Of a stretch of 25,094 bases of DNA, positions 8,338 through 25,094 are shown in pieces. Location: positions 1-25,094 of IMG/VR virus record IMGVR_UViG_3300008264_000032. One strand, given 5' to 3'. The position numbers and the translations under genes were made by a program. Numbering within the stretch: the stretch's first letter is position 1; each line of letters starts with the position of its first letter. Source of the DNA: a virus. A model generated the notes under the pieces. The model searched no databases. It was not told where the DNA came from and saw only the letters and a program-made list of their open reading frames with translations.

Positions 8338-8403
8338 AAATATATAATTTATAAAGAAGGTTTGAAATGAGCGATTTTTGGAAAACAATATGTTAATGTT
8401 TAT

Positions 8404-8607
8404 TTAAAGAAATTTAATATTTATAGCAGAGATTTTTCCTTTTACATTTTCAAGTTCAAAACTAACTTTTTGTCCCGGTTTTATATCGATAAGACCTGTT
8501 TTAGCTAGTTCAGAAACGTGAAGAAAAATGTCAGTTGCTCTGCCATCCTGTTCTATAAAACCGTAACCCTTATCAGCATTAAACCACTTAATTTTACCTG
8601 TTTTCAT
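8404..8607 (-). CDS. cspA: Cold-shock domain protein (CspA family)
   Basis: A 67-residue single cold-shock domain that binds single-stranded RNA or DNA and melts RNA structure. Both nucleic-acid motifs are intact: RNP1 KGYGFI (13-18) and RNP2 DIFLHV (26-31), after the usual start MKTGKIKWFN. It is the last gene of a leftward run. There is no clear Shine-Dalgarno before the ATG. Cold-shock genes of this kind are frequent in phages and plasmids of intracellular alphaproteobacteria. Here it sits with HU- and GapR-like nucleoid proteins, which suggests a group of nucleic-acid chaperones acting on the element's own DNA or mRNA. Confidence 0.9.
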   Translation of the reverse strand: MKTGKIKWFNADKGYGFIEQDGRATDIFLHVSELAKTGLIDIKPGQKVSFELENVKGKISAINIKFL

Positions 8608-17499: not shown

Positions 17500-17757
17500 T
17501 TAACTAGTGCCAGCGGTAATATATGAACTTTTTAGCATAACTTGTAATTTTCCCATATCTTGCTCAGATACTTCGGTTAGCTGATCAGCTTTGTACAACA
17601 GATACAGATGTTCATTATACAATTTACCAAATAATTTGTCTGATCTATATAACTCAACACCATTTTTAGTCATTCTATATTGCACTTGCCCCATTTGTGA
17701 AAGAGTAGCAATAATTTCTTTGATTAGATTACTTTCCACAACAATCCTCATTTCCAT
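17500..17757 (-). CDS. Small protein resembling a TfoX N-terminal domain
   Basis: 85 residues. The order LSQMGQVQYRMTKNGVELYRSDKLFGKLYNEHLYLLYKAD (about 19-58) follows the outline of TfoX_N domains (L-G-x-V-x-x-R-x-M-F-G-G-x-G-L-Y-x-x-x-x-x-F-x-x-(I/L)-x-x-x-x-L-Y-L-K-x-D), but the central M-F-G-G is M-T-K-N. TfoX-type proteins act in competence and regulation in other bacteria; what the short domain does is unclear. It lies alone, pointing left, between the partition operon and ctrA. A perfect CtrA box (17814-17828) and a 9-bp palindrome (17784-17804) sit upstream of its ATG, so it is a good candidate for control by the ctrA homologue here. Confidence 0.5.
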   Translation of the reverse strand: MEMRIVVESNLIKEIIATLSQMGQVQYRMTKNGVELYRSDKLFGKLYNEHLYLLYKADQLTEVSEQDMGKLQVMLKSSYITAGTS

Positions 17758-17783: not shown

Positions 17784-17804
17784 CTTATAATCAGCGATTA
17801 TAAG
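17784..17804. promoter_or_regulatory. Perfect palindrome, operator candidate
   Basis: CTTATAATC (17784-17792) and GATTATAAG (17796-17804) are exact inverted copies separated by AGC. The site lies 27 bases before the ATG of the leftward TfoX-like gene and contains TATAAT in both directions, so it overlaps a probable -10 element. A dimeric repressor site is the simplest reading. Confidence 0.6.
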
Positions 17805-17813
17805 ACCTATAAG

Positions 17814-17828
17814 TTAAAAATATGTTAA
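17814..17828. promoter_or_regulatory. CtrA box (TTAA-N7-TTAA)
   Basis: TTAAAAATATGTTAA matches the full CtrA recognition pattern, two TTAA separated by exactly 7 bases. It lies about 57 bases upstream of the TfoX-like gene start and 113 bases from the 3' end of the ctrA homologue. That position is suited to control of the small gene near its -35 region. In sequence this AT-rich, about one such match in all the intergenic DNA could arise by chance, so the location near ctrA is the stronger argument. Confidence 0.5.
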
Positions 17829-17940: not shown

Positions 17941-18639
17941 TTATCCTAAGGGGTGATGACGATCTTTTAACATATAACCATACCCTTGGACAGTTTCAAT
18001 ACAATTGATACCTCTAGAGGCTTTCGATAATTTTTGACGTATTTTACAAATAAAGACATCAACAATTTTAATTGATGGATCATTCACTCCACTATATAAA
18101 TGGTTTAAGAACATTTCTTTTGTCACAACAGTTCCTTTGCGCATAGCTAGTAATTCTAAAATAGCATATTCCTTATTTGTTAAGTGAATTGGTATGCCAT
18201 TTGCATCTAAGGTTCTTGTATCAAAGTTGATTGTAAAATTTCCAAATTGTGATGTCGATTCACAATGTCCTTTAAAACGCCGAACAATTGCTTTCATTCT
18301 TGCGAGCAACTCAGCTTTGTCAAAAGGTTTAGTTAAATAATCATCTGCACCTAGTTCTAAGGCTTTAATTTTTTTATCTGCCGATGATAGCCCAGATAAA
18401 ATAAAGACAGGTGTTTTGATTTTCCCAGCTTTTAGCTTTTCCATTACTTTGTAGCCGTCAATATCTGGTAGTACTAAATCGAGTAGGATTATATCGTAAT
18501 CATAAATCATTCCAAGATCTACGCCTTCTTGTCCAGTTTGAGCTATGTCGCAAATAATCCCATTTCTTGCAAGTGCTAATTCAATTGATTTTGCAGTCGA
18601 ATTATCGTCCTCTATAAGTAATACTCTCATCTTTTTCAT
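17941..18639 (-). CDS. ctrA: CtrA-family response regulator
   Basis: Master cell-cycle transcription factor family of alphaproteobacteria. The receiver domain (1-120) starts MRVLLIEDD and carries the acidic pocket, phospho-acceptor Asp in IILLDLVLPDIDGY (Asp54, or Asp51 as in known CtrA if Met4 is the start), SGLS and the lysine in DDYLTKPFDKAELLARM. The DNA-binding domain (about 128-232) has the CtrA-type stretches NFDTRTL, HLTNKEYAILELLAMRKGTVVTKEMFLNHLYSG and KIVDVFICKIRQKL. The end reads ETVQGYGYML, whereas CtrA usually has TVWGRGY, so it is a diverged copy. It stands alone, leftward. No kinase gene (CckA/ChpT) is in the window; phosphorylation would depend on the host. Confidence 0.92.
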   Translation of the reverse strand: MKKMRVLLIEDDNSTAKSIELALARNGIICDIAQTGQEGVDLGMIYDYDIILLDLVLPDIDGYKVMEKLKAGKIKTPVFILSGLSSADKKIKALELGADDYLTKPFDKAELLARMKAIVRRFKGHCESTSQFGNFTINFDTRTLDANGIPIHLTNKEYAILELLAMRKGTVVTKEMFLNHLYSGVNDPSIKIVDVFICKIRQKLSKASRGINCIETVQGYGYMLKDRHHPLG

Positions 18640-19781: not shown

Positions 19782-20092
19782 GCATAAACACAAAAGAAAT
19801 ACAAAAGGCATTTAAGAGAGCTAAGAATTATTTTGAACAAGAGGGGATGGGGTATGTAATATCTTGCGCTTGTGTAAAAGAAAAACACCCAGGTCACTTC
19901 AGTGGAACAAACCTAGCAAATATTGATGCCATAATTATGTTAGCGAACGCATTAAGCACCATAGTTAAACAATCTTACTCCGAGGAGGTGTTTGATGCTT
20001 TCGAAAGATCACTAGACAAATCAATAAATGAGTTTCGCTCAATACATAGACACAATCAATTACTCAAACTTGAATTAGGAGGGGTGGCATGA
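19778..20092 (+). CDS. Unknown 104-residue protein
   Basis: Second coupled gene of the small-gene operon; overlaps its neighbours by 4 bases on both sides. Features: a cysteine pair in SCACVKEKHPGH (about 29-40), which together with the histidines might bind a metal, and a helical middle (NIDAIIMLANALSTIVKQSYSEEVFDAFERSL). No family recognised. Confidence 0.6.
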   Translation: MSINTKEIQKAFKRAKNYFEQEGMGYVISCACVKEKHPGHFSGTNLANIDAIIMLANALSTIVKQSYSEEVFDAFERSLDKSINEFRSIHRHNQLLKLELGGVA

Positions 20093-20457
20093 GTAAAAAA
20101 ATAAACGGAGATATCAAGAAATGGCACACTGAAATCTGGGAATTAATTAATAGTAAAAACGTCAAAAACTATGAGTATATATTTGTCGTTCATAATAACA
20201 ATACGATGCCTAAAGGAATTCGTGCCAGTAAAGAGGTGGGTTTTAATATTGGGTCTAATCTCTTTGTACAAGGGTTGTCTGAGTATCTGATCGATCAATA
20301 CGATGTGGTACGCATGCCCAAAACAATGCTTTCTTCCACAATAGACTGTCTGCTTTATCAGCTAAAACATGACGTAATCCAAAGAATACAAAGTCATAAA
20401 AAAGAATCAAAATCATCTGTTTTAAATTTTCCTCTCAAAAAAGGAGATAAAGCATGA
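20089..20457 (+). CDS. Unknown 122-residue protein
   Basis: Third coupled gene of the small-gene operon, ATGA overlap at both ends and GGAGG as ribosome binding site. Begins basic (MSKKINGDIKKW), then strands (YEYIFVVHNNN, VGFNIGSNLFVQGL) and ends with a lysine-rich tail (LKKGDKA). No motif recognised; role unknown but linked to the downstream DNA-binding gene. Confidence 0.6.
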   Translation: MSKKINGDIKKWHTEIWELINSKNVKNYEYIFVVHNNNTMPKGIRASKEVGFNIGSNLFVQGLSEYLIDQYDVVRMPKTMLSSTIDCLLYQLKHDVIQRIQSHKKESKSSVLNFPLKKGDKA

Positions 20458-20966
20458 AAGCTGTATCTAATAATAAAACTGAGCCGACTGTTATTAAAGT
20501 TAAAAACACTAGTCTCGTCCTTAAAAACAAACATCAATTAAGCACAATTATTGTGGATTCAAGAGGTAGGCCAGATACTTTAGCGATTAACTTATATTGG
20601 GACGAATTTAGATCATGGCATAATCCTAAGAAAATATATAATAAAGGTAATGTTGTATATTTTTCTCGTTTAAAGAAAAAGGGCATAAGTACTTCTTATC
20701 AAAGATTATCTAAAAAATATGGTTTTACAAAGGAAACCCTAAGGCAAAAAGTAGTCAAACTAGAAGAATTAGAACTAATTAGTAGAGACTTTGAGACTGA
20801 AACAAAATTCAAAAAGGTTTTTCATAATCAGCTAGTTATTCATGTTTGGCAACAAACTCCTCATTTCTATAACCCCATGGGAGTTGATAGAGAACAAATA
20901 AAAGAACTAAGATTATCAACTAATCATGAGTATATAGAGTCGAAATATGGGTATTATGACAAGTAG
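20454..20966 (+). pseudogene. Winged-helix replication-type protein, 3' end cut by a transposon
   Basis: 170 residues remain. The part KNKHQLSTIIVDSRGRPDTLAINLYWDEFRSW (about 25-56), then TSYQRLSKKYGFTKETLRQKVVKLEELELISRDF (about 82-115), recalls the winged-helix proteins of Rickettsiales plasmids and conjugative elements often labelled DnaA-like or replication-associated. The terminal inverted repeat of the Tn3-type element begins at 20959, and the TAG stop at 20964-20966 and the last residues lie inside it. The native C-terminus is therefore lost or on the far side of the transposon, beyond the window. The remaining domain could still be made and bind DNA. The family resemblance is from memory and moderate. 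Confidence 0.6.
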
Positions 20967-21061
20967 AGGCCAAATCCGACATTAGGGTGATTATTTGGGT
21001 AGTTTTTAGGGGTTTAAGCAGGAATTTATCTTGTGACTTAGTAAGCGCATAATTAGTATTA
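20959..21061 (+). repeat. Left terminal inverted repeat
   Basis: Exact inverted copy, over 103 bases, of 24992-25094. Begins ACAAGTAGAGGCC and contains the stop and last 17 codons of tnpA (21006-21061). Tn3 repeats are usually about 38 bases, so this is unusually long, and the true outer end cannot be fixed here. Confidence 0.9.
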
Positions 21062-24035
21062 AACTCAATAATTCTTCAACATTTGTTGGTTCATTTGCTG
21101 CTAAATTTCTAAAATCATAAGTTCCCAGCATATTGACATGTCTCCACATTAATATTGAGCCATTAGTAATGTTTTCCATAAGGAAAGGCCTTTGTAGAGT
21201 ATCAGACGTCATTATTACTTTTGTAAGCTTAACGTAGTTCCACAATACAATAATATTTTGTAATATCATTTGACACATCGCAGCTTGTTCCTGCTCATCT
21301 CTGCCTACTTGTGTCAATTCTTGGTTATTAGCAAAGACAATAGCCCCTTGGAATCTATTAGACAATTCCCCTTTATTCAATTGCTTCTCTATTTGCTGAC
21401 GTAATTCAACATTATCTATAATATCTAAAATAAAACATGTTTTGATAATCCTGCCAAATTCTTTTAGTGCAACATATAACCTGTGTTGTTTATCATAGGA
21501 AGATAATCTCTTCATTATGGTAGATGCTTTTTCTTCTCTAAGCAATATAGTTGCTAATAACCTCAGCACTGTATCCCAACAGCTTCTCATATATTTTTCA
21601 TTCACATAGCGATTTGGTGAAATTATGTAATTAGCATCTTGTTTATCAAATGATACTAGATACTGCGTTCCTAAATTCTTGATTCTAGGGGCAAATGATG
21701 TTTTCATTAAATGTGATAGAGCAAATACTAATTCTGTATAGCCTTCAGTATCTGTAGAATGTATATCACTTTTTACCCCTACATTATGTTGTAAACCATC
21801 TATAACATAAGCTGCATCACGTTCAGAGCTACTAAATACTGTAGAATAAAATAATATATTTCTCTCATCAATAAATGTATAAATGTTTGATCCGCGACCA
21901 TGACCAAAATATTTATAGGAATAGTTTGCATTTAATGACTCAGCAGATACACATCTTTTTTTACCATCACTAGAGGTATGTAGTAAATTTTGTTCCTTTT
22001 GAAACTGCTCTGGTAACCACATCTTGCTCATAAAATCTACTAACATATTATTTGTTGCATATAGATTTTCGAGCGAGAAATGCCAGTTCACACCATGCAA
22101 TAAACTATTATAGCTCACTCCTACCGCTGTGTTAGCCAGTTTATGTACGCCTATATTACTGCCGAGTGCAAATAGACCTGCAAATATTGTTTCGTCGGAG
22201 ATTTTCTGCTGTACTCCTTTAACCTTATGATGCTTAAAGTTACCAGTAAATCCTATCATATTGTTTACTTCAGACATCATCTGTAAAATCGGTATGTAGT
22301 TGTCATAACCTATAATTTTATAAATGGAATCATAATGAGGTTTTTCTGGGGCGGGTGTTGATAAAGAAAAATTACCGTCTTCTTTAATTTTAATATATTT
22401 ATTAGTTGCTAAATTCTTATTAACCCGAGAGTATTTATAATTTAACTCGGTTCTTAATTTTGTAAGTATATTATTTATATCAGCGAATTCTTGTAATCCC
22501 AATTTCTCAAGCAATTCTTCTTTTCTTTCTTGCCAAATTTTCTCTTTAATTAAATAGGATTCTATAGGCATATAACGATATGACCTTGCAAGGCTAACAT
22601 CCCCAGATTTAATAGCCTCTACTATTTTCATAAATAATAAGACCTTATATAAACTAGCATTAAAGCCATTATTGTATATAATCTCTATCTCGTTTTGCTG
22701 CAAAAATTTATTAGGTGCTGCTTTAGTTAAATTATTATTTTGATAATATACTATTGCATCGCGCAAATCATCACCTGCAACAACAAATTCAATATGTTTG
22801 ACAATATCAGCTAATCTGTTTTGTAATTTGCGTGATGCTCTTTCTAAAATTATTAAATTCTGCTTATTATGGTTGTAATGATCTAGATTTTTCTTCAATT
22901 CATTGACTTTAGCTACTGAATCAGTTTCTTGTTTTTCCTTGGATAAGATAACCTTCAATTGTTTAATCTTATTGTTATTATTAGTTTCCGTATCATAAAC
23001 CACTTTTTTTATTGCACCAATAAGGTCTGCTTGTTTATCAAAACCACTTAAGACAAAACCAAGTAAATTACTGTTACGTGCAGCAAATTCCGAGTGAGAT
23101 TCCTTAACTGCCATTTCAATTTTATTTAGGTGCTGTTGATTGACTTTTAGCATAGTATCGATAAAAATATCTTGCCAATTTTTATATTGATGATCAATAA
23201 AAGCCAGCAAATATAAATAGCGAATATTATCATCGTTTATTGCTTTTATTTGTGACGTTTTTGCCTTTATAACCCAATTAGCATAATATTTTATAGCTTC
23301 TGTAGATAAATCTAATTTCGTAAGTAACACGGCTATATCATTATGTAACTTCTTAATAAGTATAAAACCACTAACACTTTGCTTAATACTTGATGGTCTT
23401 ACTGATTGGCTGATTATCCTTAATTTAGTTATTGTAGCGCTATTATCTCCAGATTCTAGCAAACTATCAAAAATATCTTTGTGATCATTAGTGATGTTTG
23501 CTTCTATTTTTAAAGCTAAATTTTTCTCGAATTTATTAAGATAACTAGTGATTGTTCTTGCAAACGTATCATAATTAGGTACTTCTACTTTTTGCTCCCT
23601 AAGTAAATCTACCATGGCAAATATTATTTTGCGAGGATGCATTTGTTTAGATATAAGATTTGCTATAAATCCTGCAAACAAAGCTTTTGATTTGTTAAAG
23701 GATTTATAACCAAGCATTTCTAAAATTGCTAATTTATGAGTAAGACGAGTTCTTTCACTATAACCAGTATTGTAACCATCAAGATTTATACCAAGAAGTT
23801 TACCAATAAAAGCTTTGTCATCATGATTATATTCACTATAAAATTTACCAGTTGCTTTGAAATAACCTAATTGTAGGACAAACCCTATTTTGCTATCATT
23901 CGCGCTTAAACCATTCAATTTATCTTTTATTTTTGCTGAAACAGCAAAAAATTTATGTCTCTCATTATCATTAAATAATGGAACACTATCAAATTTTTTA
24001 ATCTCGTACGGTGATAAAATCTTTATTCTACTCAT
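21006..24035 (-). CDS. tnpA: Tn3-family transposase TnpA
   Basis: DDE-type transposase that cuts the transposon ends and makes cointegrates. The 1009-residue length is normal. Helical N-terminal part binds the terminal repeats. The catalytic region shows the family blocks: FAGLFALGSNIGVHKLA (about 618-634), SSDGKKRCVSAESLNANYSYKYFGHGRG with Asp690, VIDGLQHN, DIHSTDTEGYTELVFAL with Asp762, FAPRIKNLG and KQLNKGELSNRF with Glu890. Asp690, Asp762 and Glu890 have nearly the spacing known for the Tn4430 triad (72 and about 130 residues). The frame is intact. Its ATG overlaps the tnpI stop by 4 bases (ATGA), and its last codons lie in the left inverted repeat. Confidence 0.95.
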   Translation of the reverse strand: MSRIKILSPYEIKKFDSVPLFNDNERHKFFAVSAKIKDKLNGLSANDSKIGFVLQLGYFKATGKFYSEYNHDDKAFIGKLLGINLDGYNTGYSERTRLTHKLAILEMLGYKSFNKSKALFAGFIANLISKQMHPRKIIFAMVDLLREQKVEVPNYDTFARTITSYLNKFEKNLALKIEANITNDHKDIFDSLLESGDNSATITKLRIISQSVRPSSIKQSVSGFILIKKLHNDIAVLLTKLDLSTEAIKYYANWVIKAKTSQIKAINDDNIRYLYLLAFIDHQYKNWQDIFIDTMLKVNQQHLNKIEMAVKESHSEFAARNSNLLGFVLSGFDKQADLIGAIKKVVYDTETNNNNKIKQLKVILSKEKQETDSVAKVNELKKNLDHYNHNKQNLIILERASRKLQNRLADIVKHIEFVVAGDDLRDAIVYYQNNNLTKAAPNKFLQQNEIEIIYNNGFNASLYKVLLFMKIVEAIKSGDVSLARSYRYMPIESYLIKEKIWQERKEELLEKLGLQEFADINNILTKLRTELNYKYSRVNKNLATNKYIKIKEDGNFSLSTPAPEKPHYDSIYKIIGYDNYIPILQMMSEVNNMIGFTGNFKHHKVKGVQQKISDETIFAGLFALGSNIGVHKLANTAVGVSYNSLLHGVNWHFSLENLYATNNMLVDFMSKMWLPEQFQKEQNLLHTSSDGKKRCVSAESLNANYSYKYFGHGRGSNIYTFIDERNILFYSTVFSSSERDAAYVIDGLQHNVGVKSDIHSTDTEGYTELVFALSHLMKTSFAPRIKNLGTQYLVSFDKQDANYIISPNRYVNEKYMRSCWDTVLRLLATILLREEKASTIMKRLSSYDKQHRLYVALKEFGRIIKTCFILDIIDNVELRQQIEKQLNKGELSNRFQGAIVFANNQELTQVGRDEQEQAAMCQMILQNIIVLWNYVKLTKVIMTSDTLQRPFLMENITNGSILMWRHVNMLGTYDFRNLAANEPTNVEELLSLILIMRLLSHKINSCLNP

Positions 24036-24907
24036 TCTTCCTCGCTAATTTTAGCCACCGCTTCACTTAAATCAGCATTCGAAGGATGGCAATATATTTT
24101 TGTTGTATCTAAACTCTCATGACCAGCTAGTAGCGCAACCTTTTCAAGACTAACCCCACTATTTACCAAATTTTTACAGAAACTATGACGTAAATCATGA
24201 GGACTAATATTGGCTAAATCTGTATTAGCCAATACTCTCTTTAACATCAACTGCACGCCTCTTGGAGTCAAGCTTCCTCTCTGACCAACAAAAATCTGAC
24301 TATCACTACCAACGTTAGCTTGATAATTAATAGATTCAAATGCGAGTCTGGCTGATTTATTTAAAGGAATCTCTCTAGATTTACCCCCTTTACTATAATG
24401 TACAACCAAATTACCTCTACGGTTTGTTATTGTAACATGCCTCCACCTCAAGTTACAAAGTTCTTTTATCCTGAGCCCTGTATGTAGTAAAATTTTGATA
24501 ATTGCTATATTCCGAACGTTGGCATATCTCTCAAAATATCTCAGTAATGTATTTTGTTCAAGACGGTCTAGCCATCTAGCTGTAATGGAACTTTGCTTTA
24601 CTAGTTTCGGTAGCGGAAATCTATATTCCATTTTTTTAGTATCCCAGCCCCATTGCATAAAATATTTTAAACTAAGGATTTTGCGATTTATGGTATTTGG
24701 TTTGAATTCATTATCAATTAAATATTGCTTATATAGACGAATATCTGTTGGCGTAACTTTGTGAATGACAAAGGAATAATGGTTGACCTTATCAAACCAT
24801 CTGGCAAAAACAATTATATCATTTTTATAACTATTTATTGTAGATTCTGATTTATTCAGGTGTTTTTGGTATTTTACAAAATCTTCAATTTCTTTGATTT
24901 TGGGCAT
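24032..24907 (-). CDS. tnpI: Tyrosine recombinase TnpI (cointegrate resolvase)
   Basis: Phage-integrase-type recombinase that should resolve transposition cointegrates at a site in the transposon. The N-terminal core-binding SAM-like domain spans about 1-95. The catalytic residues are all present: Arg146 in TGLRIKEL, Lys173 in YSKGGKSREIP, His237 and Arg240 in PHDLRHSF, His263 in LLAGHESLDTT, and nucleophile Tyr272 in KIYCHPS. It precedes and overlaps tnpA in one operon. Its start is 85 bases from the right terminal repeat, with the candidate target site between them. It could also be a XerC/D-like phage integrase, but the position makes TnpI far more likely. Confidence 0.92.
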   Translation of the reverse strand: MPKIKEIEDFVKYQKHLNKSESTINSYKNDIIVFARWFDKVNHYSFVIHKVTPTDIRLYKQYLIDNEFKPNTINRKILSLKYFMQWGWDTKKMEYRFPLPKLVKQSSITARWLDRLEQNTLLRYFERYANVRNIAIIKILLHTGLRIKELCNLRWRHVTITNRRGNLVVHYSKGGKSREIPLNKSARLAFESINYQANVGSDSQIFVGQRGSLTPRGVQLMLKRVLANTDLANISPHDLRHSFCKNLVNSGVSLEKVALLAGHESLDTTKIYCHPSNADLSEAVAKISEEE

Positions 24908-24912
24908 AACTT

Positions 24913-24995
24913 ATTATACGATTAGTTTTTCTAGAGATAATTTAGCATAAAAGTATCCTTTATGCGATGAGTTCCTCACTAATATATCGTATAAT
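24913..24995. promoter_or_regulatory. Probable TnpI recombination site (IRS-like) and tnpI-tnpA promoter region
   Basis: The gap between tnpI and the right inverted repeat has nested inverted repeats. The outer pair ATTATACGAT (24913-24922) and ATCGTATAAT (24986-24995) is exact over 10 bases. The inner pair GCATAAAAG (24945-24953) and CCTTTATGC (24957-24965), separated by TAT, matches in 8 of 9 positions. The inner pair looks like a recombinase core site; the outer elements resemble accessory arms. Position and layout match the IRS of Tn4430. Confidence 0.65.
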
Positions 24996-25094
24996 ACTAA
25001 TTATGCGCTTACTAAGTCACAAGATAAATTCCTGCTTAAACCCCTAAAAACTACCCAAATAATCACCCTAATGTCGGATTTGGCCTCTACTTGT
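24992..25094 (-). repeat. Right terminal inverted repeat, including a copy of the tnpA 3' end
   Basis: Inverted copy of 20959-21061, reaching the last base of the window. It therefore carries a duplicate of the tnpA 3' end on the + strand (MRLLSHKINSCLNP then stop). Its inner edge overlaps the probable TnpI site. Confidence 0.9.

What the first reader, a model, noticed from the sequence alone, without database searches (positions are those of the whole stretch)
17814..17828. Perfect CtrA box next to the ctrA homologue, before a TfoX-like gene
TTAA-N7-TTAA occurs here exactly, in the presumed promoter of the 85-residue leftward gene, with a 9-bp palindrome 10 bases away. Given the AT content, a match is expected about once by chance in the intergenic DNA here, so place matters more than pattern. 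If real, it defines a small CtrA-controlled circuit on the element, possibly driving a TfoX_N-like protein.
Basis: partly seen in the sequence, partly recalled or inferred. Interest (0 to 1): 0.62.

Follow-up and report, generated by a model that had tools for sequence, protein, structure and literature searches.

The report
Conserved CtrA-type promoter on Rickettsiaceae phage element
A short DNA switch on a phage-like element of Rickettsiaceae bacteria matches the binding site of the cell-cycle regulator CtrA, keeps its exact layout in all four close relatives found, and probably lets host CtrA turn on a small TfoY-like protein; the element also carries its own altered CtrA gene next door.

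Summary
The box is real. TTAA-N7-TTAA lies at 17814-17828, but it reads properly on the minus strand (TTAACATATTTTTAAC, 17828-17813), where it also has the C of the published 9-mer TTAA-N7-TTAAC. The bare pattern is not enriched in the window (2 found, 4.7 expected). What makes it credible is its context. A TATAAT lies exactly 11 bp downstream, and no -35 hexamer sits at 16-18 bp. The layout is conserved at the three closest homologues of the downstream gene (64-66% identity; two Ca. Megaera/Megaira records and one unnamed Rickettsiaceae genome). The 22-bp core is 86-91% identical there, while the 60 bp upstream is at chance level (13-37%). The same layout (TTAAY-N6-TTAAY-N10-TAYAAT) occurs 24 times in 12 records, against 3 for a control shifted by 3 bp. 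ctrA is next to the gene only here, so the box is explained by host CtrA. The element's CtrA is a fast-evolving Rickettsiaceae CtrA that has lost residues invariant in 40 other CtrAs. The gene product is a TfoX/TfoY-N-like fold of about 79 aa. No binding or transcription data exist.

The parts
17813..17828 (-). CtrA-type full box TTAACATATTTTTAAC (TTAA-N7-TTAAC; also a TTAAC-N6-TTAAC direct repeat)
   Evidence: sequence; conserved in 4 of 4 close orthologues
17797..17802 (-). -10 hexamer TATAAT, 11 bp after the second TTAA; predicted +1 near 17790, which puts the 5' base of the box at -38
   Evidence: TATAAT or TACAAT at the same place in all four orthologues; no -35 hexamer at 16-18 bp; TSS inferred, not mapped
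17784..17804 (.). Perfect 9-bp inverted repeat CTTATAATC-agc-GATTATAAG over the -10/+1 region; candidate operator, present only in this element
   Evidence: absent in orthologues
17500..17739 (-). Small TfoX/TfoY N-domain-like protein (79 aa from the conserved GTG start with GAGG upstream; 85 aa if the ATG at 17757 is used)
   Evidence: Pfam TfoX_N 15.6 bits, below cut-off; fold match to 2od0 = VP1028/TfoY; alignment A2
17941..18639 (-). Divergent CtrA (response regulator with winged-helix domain), 232 aa
18814..18843 (-). Candidate N6-spaced CtrA box with -10 upstream of ctrA itself: TTAAGGAAAATTAAC-TAATAACAG-TACAAT (possible autoregulation)
   Evidence: only suggestive: about 1 such relaxed match per window by chance, and no relative to compare

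Best explanation
The 32 bp at 17828-17797 (minus strand) form an activator-type promoter. Phosphorylated CtrA would bind the TTAAC-N6-TTAAC direct repeat centred near -31, in place of a -35 element, and recruit RNA polymerase to the TATAAT 11 bp downstream, switching on a small TfoX/TfoY N-domain-like protein. The site serves host (chromosomal) CtrA, because the same promoter stands before the same gene in relatives that have no ctrA beside it. The element's own CtrA copy, derived from a Rickettsiaceae ctrA and keeping the DNA-recognition helix, can probably bind the same site, but its effect (co-activator, competitor or weak repressor) is unknown. Shown: sequence, geometry, conservation, recurrence of the promoter class. 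Inferred: CtrA binding, activation, and the role of the product.
For: Conservation: the 22-bp core is 86-91% identical between window and three orthologues, against 13-37% in the 60 bp upstream, and the -10 is kept at the same spacing. Specificity: TTAAN7TTAACNTATAG occurs 8 times in 85 Rickettsiaceae genomes (control patterns 10 times), and both genomes that hold a close orthologue have it once, at that gene. Promoter class: TTAAY-N6-TTAAY-N10-TAYAAT 24 hits in 12 records against 3 at a 3-bp shift; the only hit in the window, in W01 and in G031 is this promoter. 17 of 19 such sites elsewhere have an ORF start 11-41 bp downstream, against 3 of 19 controls, Fisher p = 1e-5. A matrix from G018/G026 only ranks this site first in the window (no other above threshold) and its orthologue second in a 1.45-Mb genome. 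CtrA full motifs in Caulobacter have their 5' base near -35/-39 of activated start sites (PMC4287350). R. prowazekii CtrA works in Caulobacter (PMC9437464, PMC6180460).
Against: No binding, transcription or start-site data. Only four close orthologues are known. Three more distant homologues (28-36%) also have a perfect TTAA-N7-TTAA upstream, but with other -10 spacing, and others have a one-mismatch box or none. The matrix and pattern counts fix the TTAA and TATAAT letters, so they test the layout rather than the identity of the regulator. Two of the genomes carry most of the class hits (G018, G026).
Confidence: 0.77

Rival explanations
1. Closed circuit on the element: the neighbouring element-borne CtrA is the main regulator of the box (and of itself through an N6 box), so the element carries a private CtrA switch.
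For: Adjacency; recognition helix kept; candidate N6 box with TACAAT upstream of ctrA, like the TTAA-N6-TTAA of Caulobacter ctrA P2 (PMC11264516).
Against: ctrA is not adjacent in the three other orthologues; element CtrA changes D186, E187, E189, W218 and R220, all invariant in 40 other CtrAs; the N6 box is about chance level.
Confidence: 0.25
2. Real conserved promoter, but read by another OmpR/PmrA-type response regulator or by RNA polymerase alone; the TTAA repeats are not a CtrA site. PmrA/BasR boxes also have TTAA repeats spaced by 7 (own knowledge).
For: PmrA/BasR are close structural relatives; the pattern alone cannot name the regulator.
Against: No -35 hexamer at 16-18 bp, so unaided use is unlikely; the C/T after each TTAA (16 of 16 sites at both unfixed positions) fits the CtrA consensus TTAAC; CtrA was found in 76 of 85 Rickettsiaceae genomes.
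Confidence: 0.15
3. Chance TTAA pair in AT-rich DNA.
For: The bare pattern is expected 4.7 times in the window.
Against: Conservation in 4 of 4 orthologues with chance-level flanks; composite pattern expected 0.0 times.
Confidence: 0.03

Closest known systems
CtrA full-site activated promoters (TTAA-N7-TTAA near -35), Caulobacter crescentus (PMC4287350)
   Same: Same box; 5' base at an inferred -38; -10 downstream; no separate -35 hexamer
   Different: Very AT-rich Rickettsiaceae element; fixed 11-bp gap to TATAAT; start site not mapped; no SciP or GANTC sites examined
CtrA boxes in alphaproteobacterial phages, e.g. vB_BsubS-Delta DELTA_120, a 68-aa gene of unknown function (PMC9437464)
   Same: Mobile-element gene for a small protein placed under a CtrA box, using host CtrA
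   Different: There clusters of boxes with EMSA and lacZ proof, and no CtrA copy is mentioned in the parts read; here a single box, an element-borne ctrA next door, and a TfoX-like product
TfoX/TfoY (Sxy) family, PF04993; structure 2od0 = VP1028 (TfoY, V. parahaemolyticus, PMC6618264)
   Same: Predicted helix - five strands - helix topology; best fold and profile match
   Different: Below Pfam cut-off; N-domain only, about 79 aa; no evidence of a role in competence or T6SS
Rickettsiaceae chromosomal CtrA
   Same: 67-72% identity to the nearest ones; nests in that clade; recognition helix kept
   Different: Carried on an element, long branch, DEPE loop and WGRGY wing changed, short C-tail

Membership tests
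CtrA full-site activated promoter | TTAA-N7-TTAA, best with C after the second half | tested here: met
   minus strand TTAACATATTTTTAAC; 9-mer consensus from PMC9791040
CtrA full-site activated promoter | Box near -35 of a -10 hexamer / start site | tested here: met
   TATAAT 11 bp after the box, same in 4 orthologues; the start site itself was not mapped
CtrA full-site activated promoter | Conserved across related loci | tested here: met
CtrA full-site activated promoter | Binds phosphorylated CtrA and is activated by it | not testable with these tools
   needs EMSA or footprint and a reporter
CtrA (NF045991) | Score above the curated cut-off (350) | tested here: not met
   331 for the window protein against 404 for Megaira chromosomal CtrA; best family by far, but a divergent homologue
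CtrA (NF045991) | Groups with alphaproteobacterial CtrA | tested here: met
   inside the Rickettsiaceae clade, 100/99 support for that clade, on a long branch
CtrA (NF045991) | Invariant DEPE loop and WGRGY wing | tested here: not met
   NDPS and QGYGY
TfoX_N (PF04993) | Pfam gathering score 30.1 | tested here: not met
   15.6 bits, E 0.017
TfoX_N (PF04993) | TfoX_N fold | tested here: inconclusive
   2od0 is the top hit of both fold search (E 0.013, prob 1.00; model pLDDT 59) and profile search (E 0.0065)
TfoX/Sxy regulators | C-terminal TfoX_C domain and a role in competence | tested here: not met
   protein ends after the N domain; role not testable

The most novel reading that the evidence does not exclude
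The element carries an altered CtrA (recognition helix kept; loop and wing residues lost) that competes with host CtrA at TTAAY-N6-TTAAY-N10-TAYAAT promoters. It would thereby re-time the host's CtrA programme, which in some Rickettsiaceae includes effector-like genes, with the TfoX-like gene and ctrA itself as built-in targets: a mobile element that hijacks the master regulator of an obligate endosymbiont.
Probability: 0.18. Interest if true: 0.78.

Novelty: new variant of a known kind. Interest (0 to 1): 0.52.

Why it matters
CtrA control of phage genes is known in free-living hosts. Here it appears in a phage-like element of obligate intracellular Rickettsiaceae, tied to a TfoX/TfoY-like gene and beside an element-borne CtrA. 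The check also yields a simple, testable signature for CtrA-type promoters in Rickettsiaceae (TTAAY-N6-TTAAY-N10-TAYAAT), which in two genomes precedes many effector-like genes. Since most of these bacteria cannot be grown or manipulated, a readable regulon signature would be useful.

Tried and rejected
Plus-strand reading of the box: lacks the C and has no gene in that direction; rejected. The other window match (8393-8407) lies at the 3' end of the cold-shock gene between convergent genes; rejected as a promoter. Searching IMG/VR for relatives of the 85-aa protein, as single sequence and as alignment, found none, and an 11-row alignment was too diverged to search. TTAAN7TTAACNTATAG over IMG/VR gave only chance hits with no 85-aa relative. 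Counting TTAA spacings over whole genomes was confounded by codon periodicity, so I moved to intergenic DNA and to fixed -10 spacing. I first noted that distant paralogues lack the box; this was wrong for minus-strand loci and was corrected. A lost C-terminal degron in the element CtrA was considered, but tails vary too much among Rickettsiaceae to claim it. No terminator was found between ctrA and the box, so read-through from ctrA is not excluded.

Full report
What the window is. G000 is a 25,094-bp IMG/VR virus record. It has tail/baseplate genes (phrog_6 and others), a lysis-type Glyco_hydro_108 gene, RecT- and RecE-like genes, HU, cold-shock and C5-methylase genes, and a Tn3-type transposase with a tyrosine recombinase. 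It also has a ParA partition gene, so it may be a phage-plasmid. Short stretches at its right end match five Ca. Megaera polyxenophila plasmids at 95-96%. Its CtrA is closest to Rickettsiaceae, so the host is most likely a Megaera-like Rickettsiaceae.

The observation. TTAA-N7-TTAA is exactly at 17814-17828. The bare pattern is under-represented (2 found, 4.7 expected), so by itself it means nothing. Read toward the gene (minus strand) it is TTAACATATTTTTAAC. This satisfies the CtrA 9-mer TTAA-N7-TTAAC (PMC9791040) and is a perfect TTAAC-N6-TTAAC direct repeat. Eleven bases after the second TTAA is TATAAT (17802-17797). With that as -10, the predicted start is near 17790 and the 5' base of the box is at -38. 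Caulobacter CtrA full motifs have their 5' base near -35, at -39 for ctrA P2 (PMC4287350). The hexamers at 16-18 bp from TATAAT do not resemble TTGACA, as expected for an activator-dependent promoter. The full composite is expected 0.0 times in the window.

Conservation. Three close homologues of the 85-aa protein (64-66% identity) were found: on Ca. Megaera plasmid NZ_CP104167.1 (L089), on the Ca. Megaira chromosome CP084576.1 (L091), and in Rickettsiaceae genome G031 (L094). All have the same promoter: TTAATATATTTTTAACCTATAGACTTTACAAT, TTAATACATTATTAACTTATAGATTTTATAAT and TTAATATATTCTTAACTTATAGAATTTACAAT, against TTAACATATTTTTAACTTATAGGTCTTATAAT here. In an anchored comparison, the 22-bp core is 86-91% identical between window and each relative, the 60 bp upstream 13-37%; 82% of core columns are invariant against 13% outside. 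Across 85 Rickettsiaceae genomes, TTAAN7TTAACNTATAG occurs 8 times (control 10), yet both genomes that have a close orthologue have it once, at that gene. More distant homologues (28-36%) also often carry a TTAA-N7-TTAA upstream (3 perfect, 2 with one mismatch, 1 type without), with other -10 spacing.

A promoter class. TTAA-N7-TTAA followed by TATAAT was counted at gaps 8, 11 and 14 in 85 genomes. Gap 11 stands out in G018 (8 against 1 and 2) and G026 (10 against 2 and 4). Of 19 gap-11 sites from G018, G026 and G025, 17 have an ORF start 11-41 bp downstream, against 3 of 19 control sites (p = 1e-5). The base after each TTAA, which the pattern did not fix, is C or T in all 16 sites used for the matrix, at both places, as a TTAAC direct repeat predicts. 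With TTAAY-N6-TTAAY-N10-TAYAAT, 12 records give 24 hits against 3 at a 3-bp shift. A matrix built only from G018/G026 gives the 17828 site as the only window hit above threshold (21.4), and its orthologue is second in the 1.45-Mb Megaira chromosome (23.5).

The regulator. The neighbour at 17941-18639 is a CtrA homologue: best NCBIfam model CtrA, 331 bits, just under the cut-off of 350 that Megaira chromosomal CtrA passes with 404. It nests among Rickettsiaceae CtrAs on a very long branch (2.6). CtrA was found, one match each, in 76 of 85 genomes of the family at E <= 1e-60, so this is an extra copy. The recognition helix and the Asp of the receiver are kept, but D186N, E187D, E189S, W218Q and R220Y hit positions invariant in 40 chromosomal CtrAs; the three DEPE-loop positions and W218 are also intact in all five CtrA-like sequences from viral contigs, R220 in four of the five. 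By general knowledge of OmpR-family proteins these lie in the loop that contacts RNA polymerase and in the wing; so it may bind but activate differently. ctrA is not adjacent in the other three orthologues, whose promoter must answer to host CtrA. Upstream of the element ctrA is TTAAGGAAAATTAAC-TAATAACAG-TACAAT (18843-18814), an N6 box like that of Caulobacter ctrA P2 (PMC11264516). About one such relaxed match is expected per window, so this stays a lead.

The product. In all four orthologues the reading frame from V/L/M-(E/K)-(S/N)-N is shared and a GAGG- or GGG-type sequence precedes it, so the start is probably GTG 17739 (79 aa). Pfam TfoX_N scores 15.6 bits (cut-off 30.1). A single-sequence AlphaFold model (pLDDT 59) has helix - five strands - helix; its best PDB match is 2od0 (E 0.013, prob 1.00), and a profile of the family also finds 2od0 first (E 0.0065). 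2od0 is VP1028, which PMC6618264 identifies as TfoY. In L089 and L094 the gene precedes HU and cold-shock genes on the same strand, suggesting an early-gene cluster; here it stands alone.

The palindrome. CTTATAATC-agc-GATTATAAG (17784-17804) covers -14 to +7 of the predicted start. It is unique in the window (0.07 expected with 3 mismatches) and absent in the relatives, so it may be an operator specific to this element.

Conclusion. The box is most likely a genuine CtrA-type activator site serving a TfoX/TfoY-N-like gene, conserved independently of the adjacent ctrA. The private circuit is possible but unproven. CtrA sites in phages are known (PMC9437464), so this is a new variant of a known kind.

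Noticed in passing
L366-L385 (G018, G026, G025): Rickettsiaceae promoters with the layout TTAA-N7-TTAA-N11-TATAAT precede effector-like genes: ankyrin repeat (L382), Sel1 repeat (L375), a related pair of long proteins (L366 with a weak phosphoinositide-phosphatase match, L380 with a CKSGKDRTG motif), large coiled-coil proteins, plus RlpA-like (L370) and NhaA (L381). This suggests a CtrA-controlled host-interaction regulon.
   Followed up: partly
G001:C1:793546-793577 (-), also G029:C1:1133301-1133332: Best matrix hit in the Megaira chromosome: TTAATATATTATTAATTTATGTTGTTTATAAT before an 87-aa protein of unknown family; conserved in G029.
   Followed up: no
L002-L006 (IMG/VR contigs): Several other viral contigs carry CtrA-like genes (48-53% identity) that keep the DEPE loop and mostly the WGRGY wing; contexts not examined.
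   Followed up: no
plasmids: Small Methylobacterium plasmids (37-67 kb) carry extra CtrA genes; plasmid-borne CtrA looks widespread.
   Followed up: no
L091 1158-1361 (-), L089 5657-5842 (-): Short SpoT/RelA-like fragments sit divergently upstream of the TfoX-like gene in two relatives (recognised by eye).
   Followed up: no
window 20943-25094: Tn3-type transposase and tyrosine recombinase; the region's ends match five Ca. Megaera polyxenophila plasmids at 95-96% identity over short stretches.
   Followed up: partly
window 20089-20457: Weak match to bacHORMA_1 (E 0.008, below cut-off) in a small protein before the transposon.
   Followed up: no
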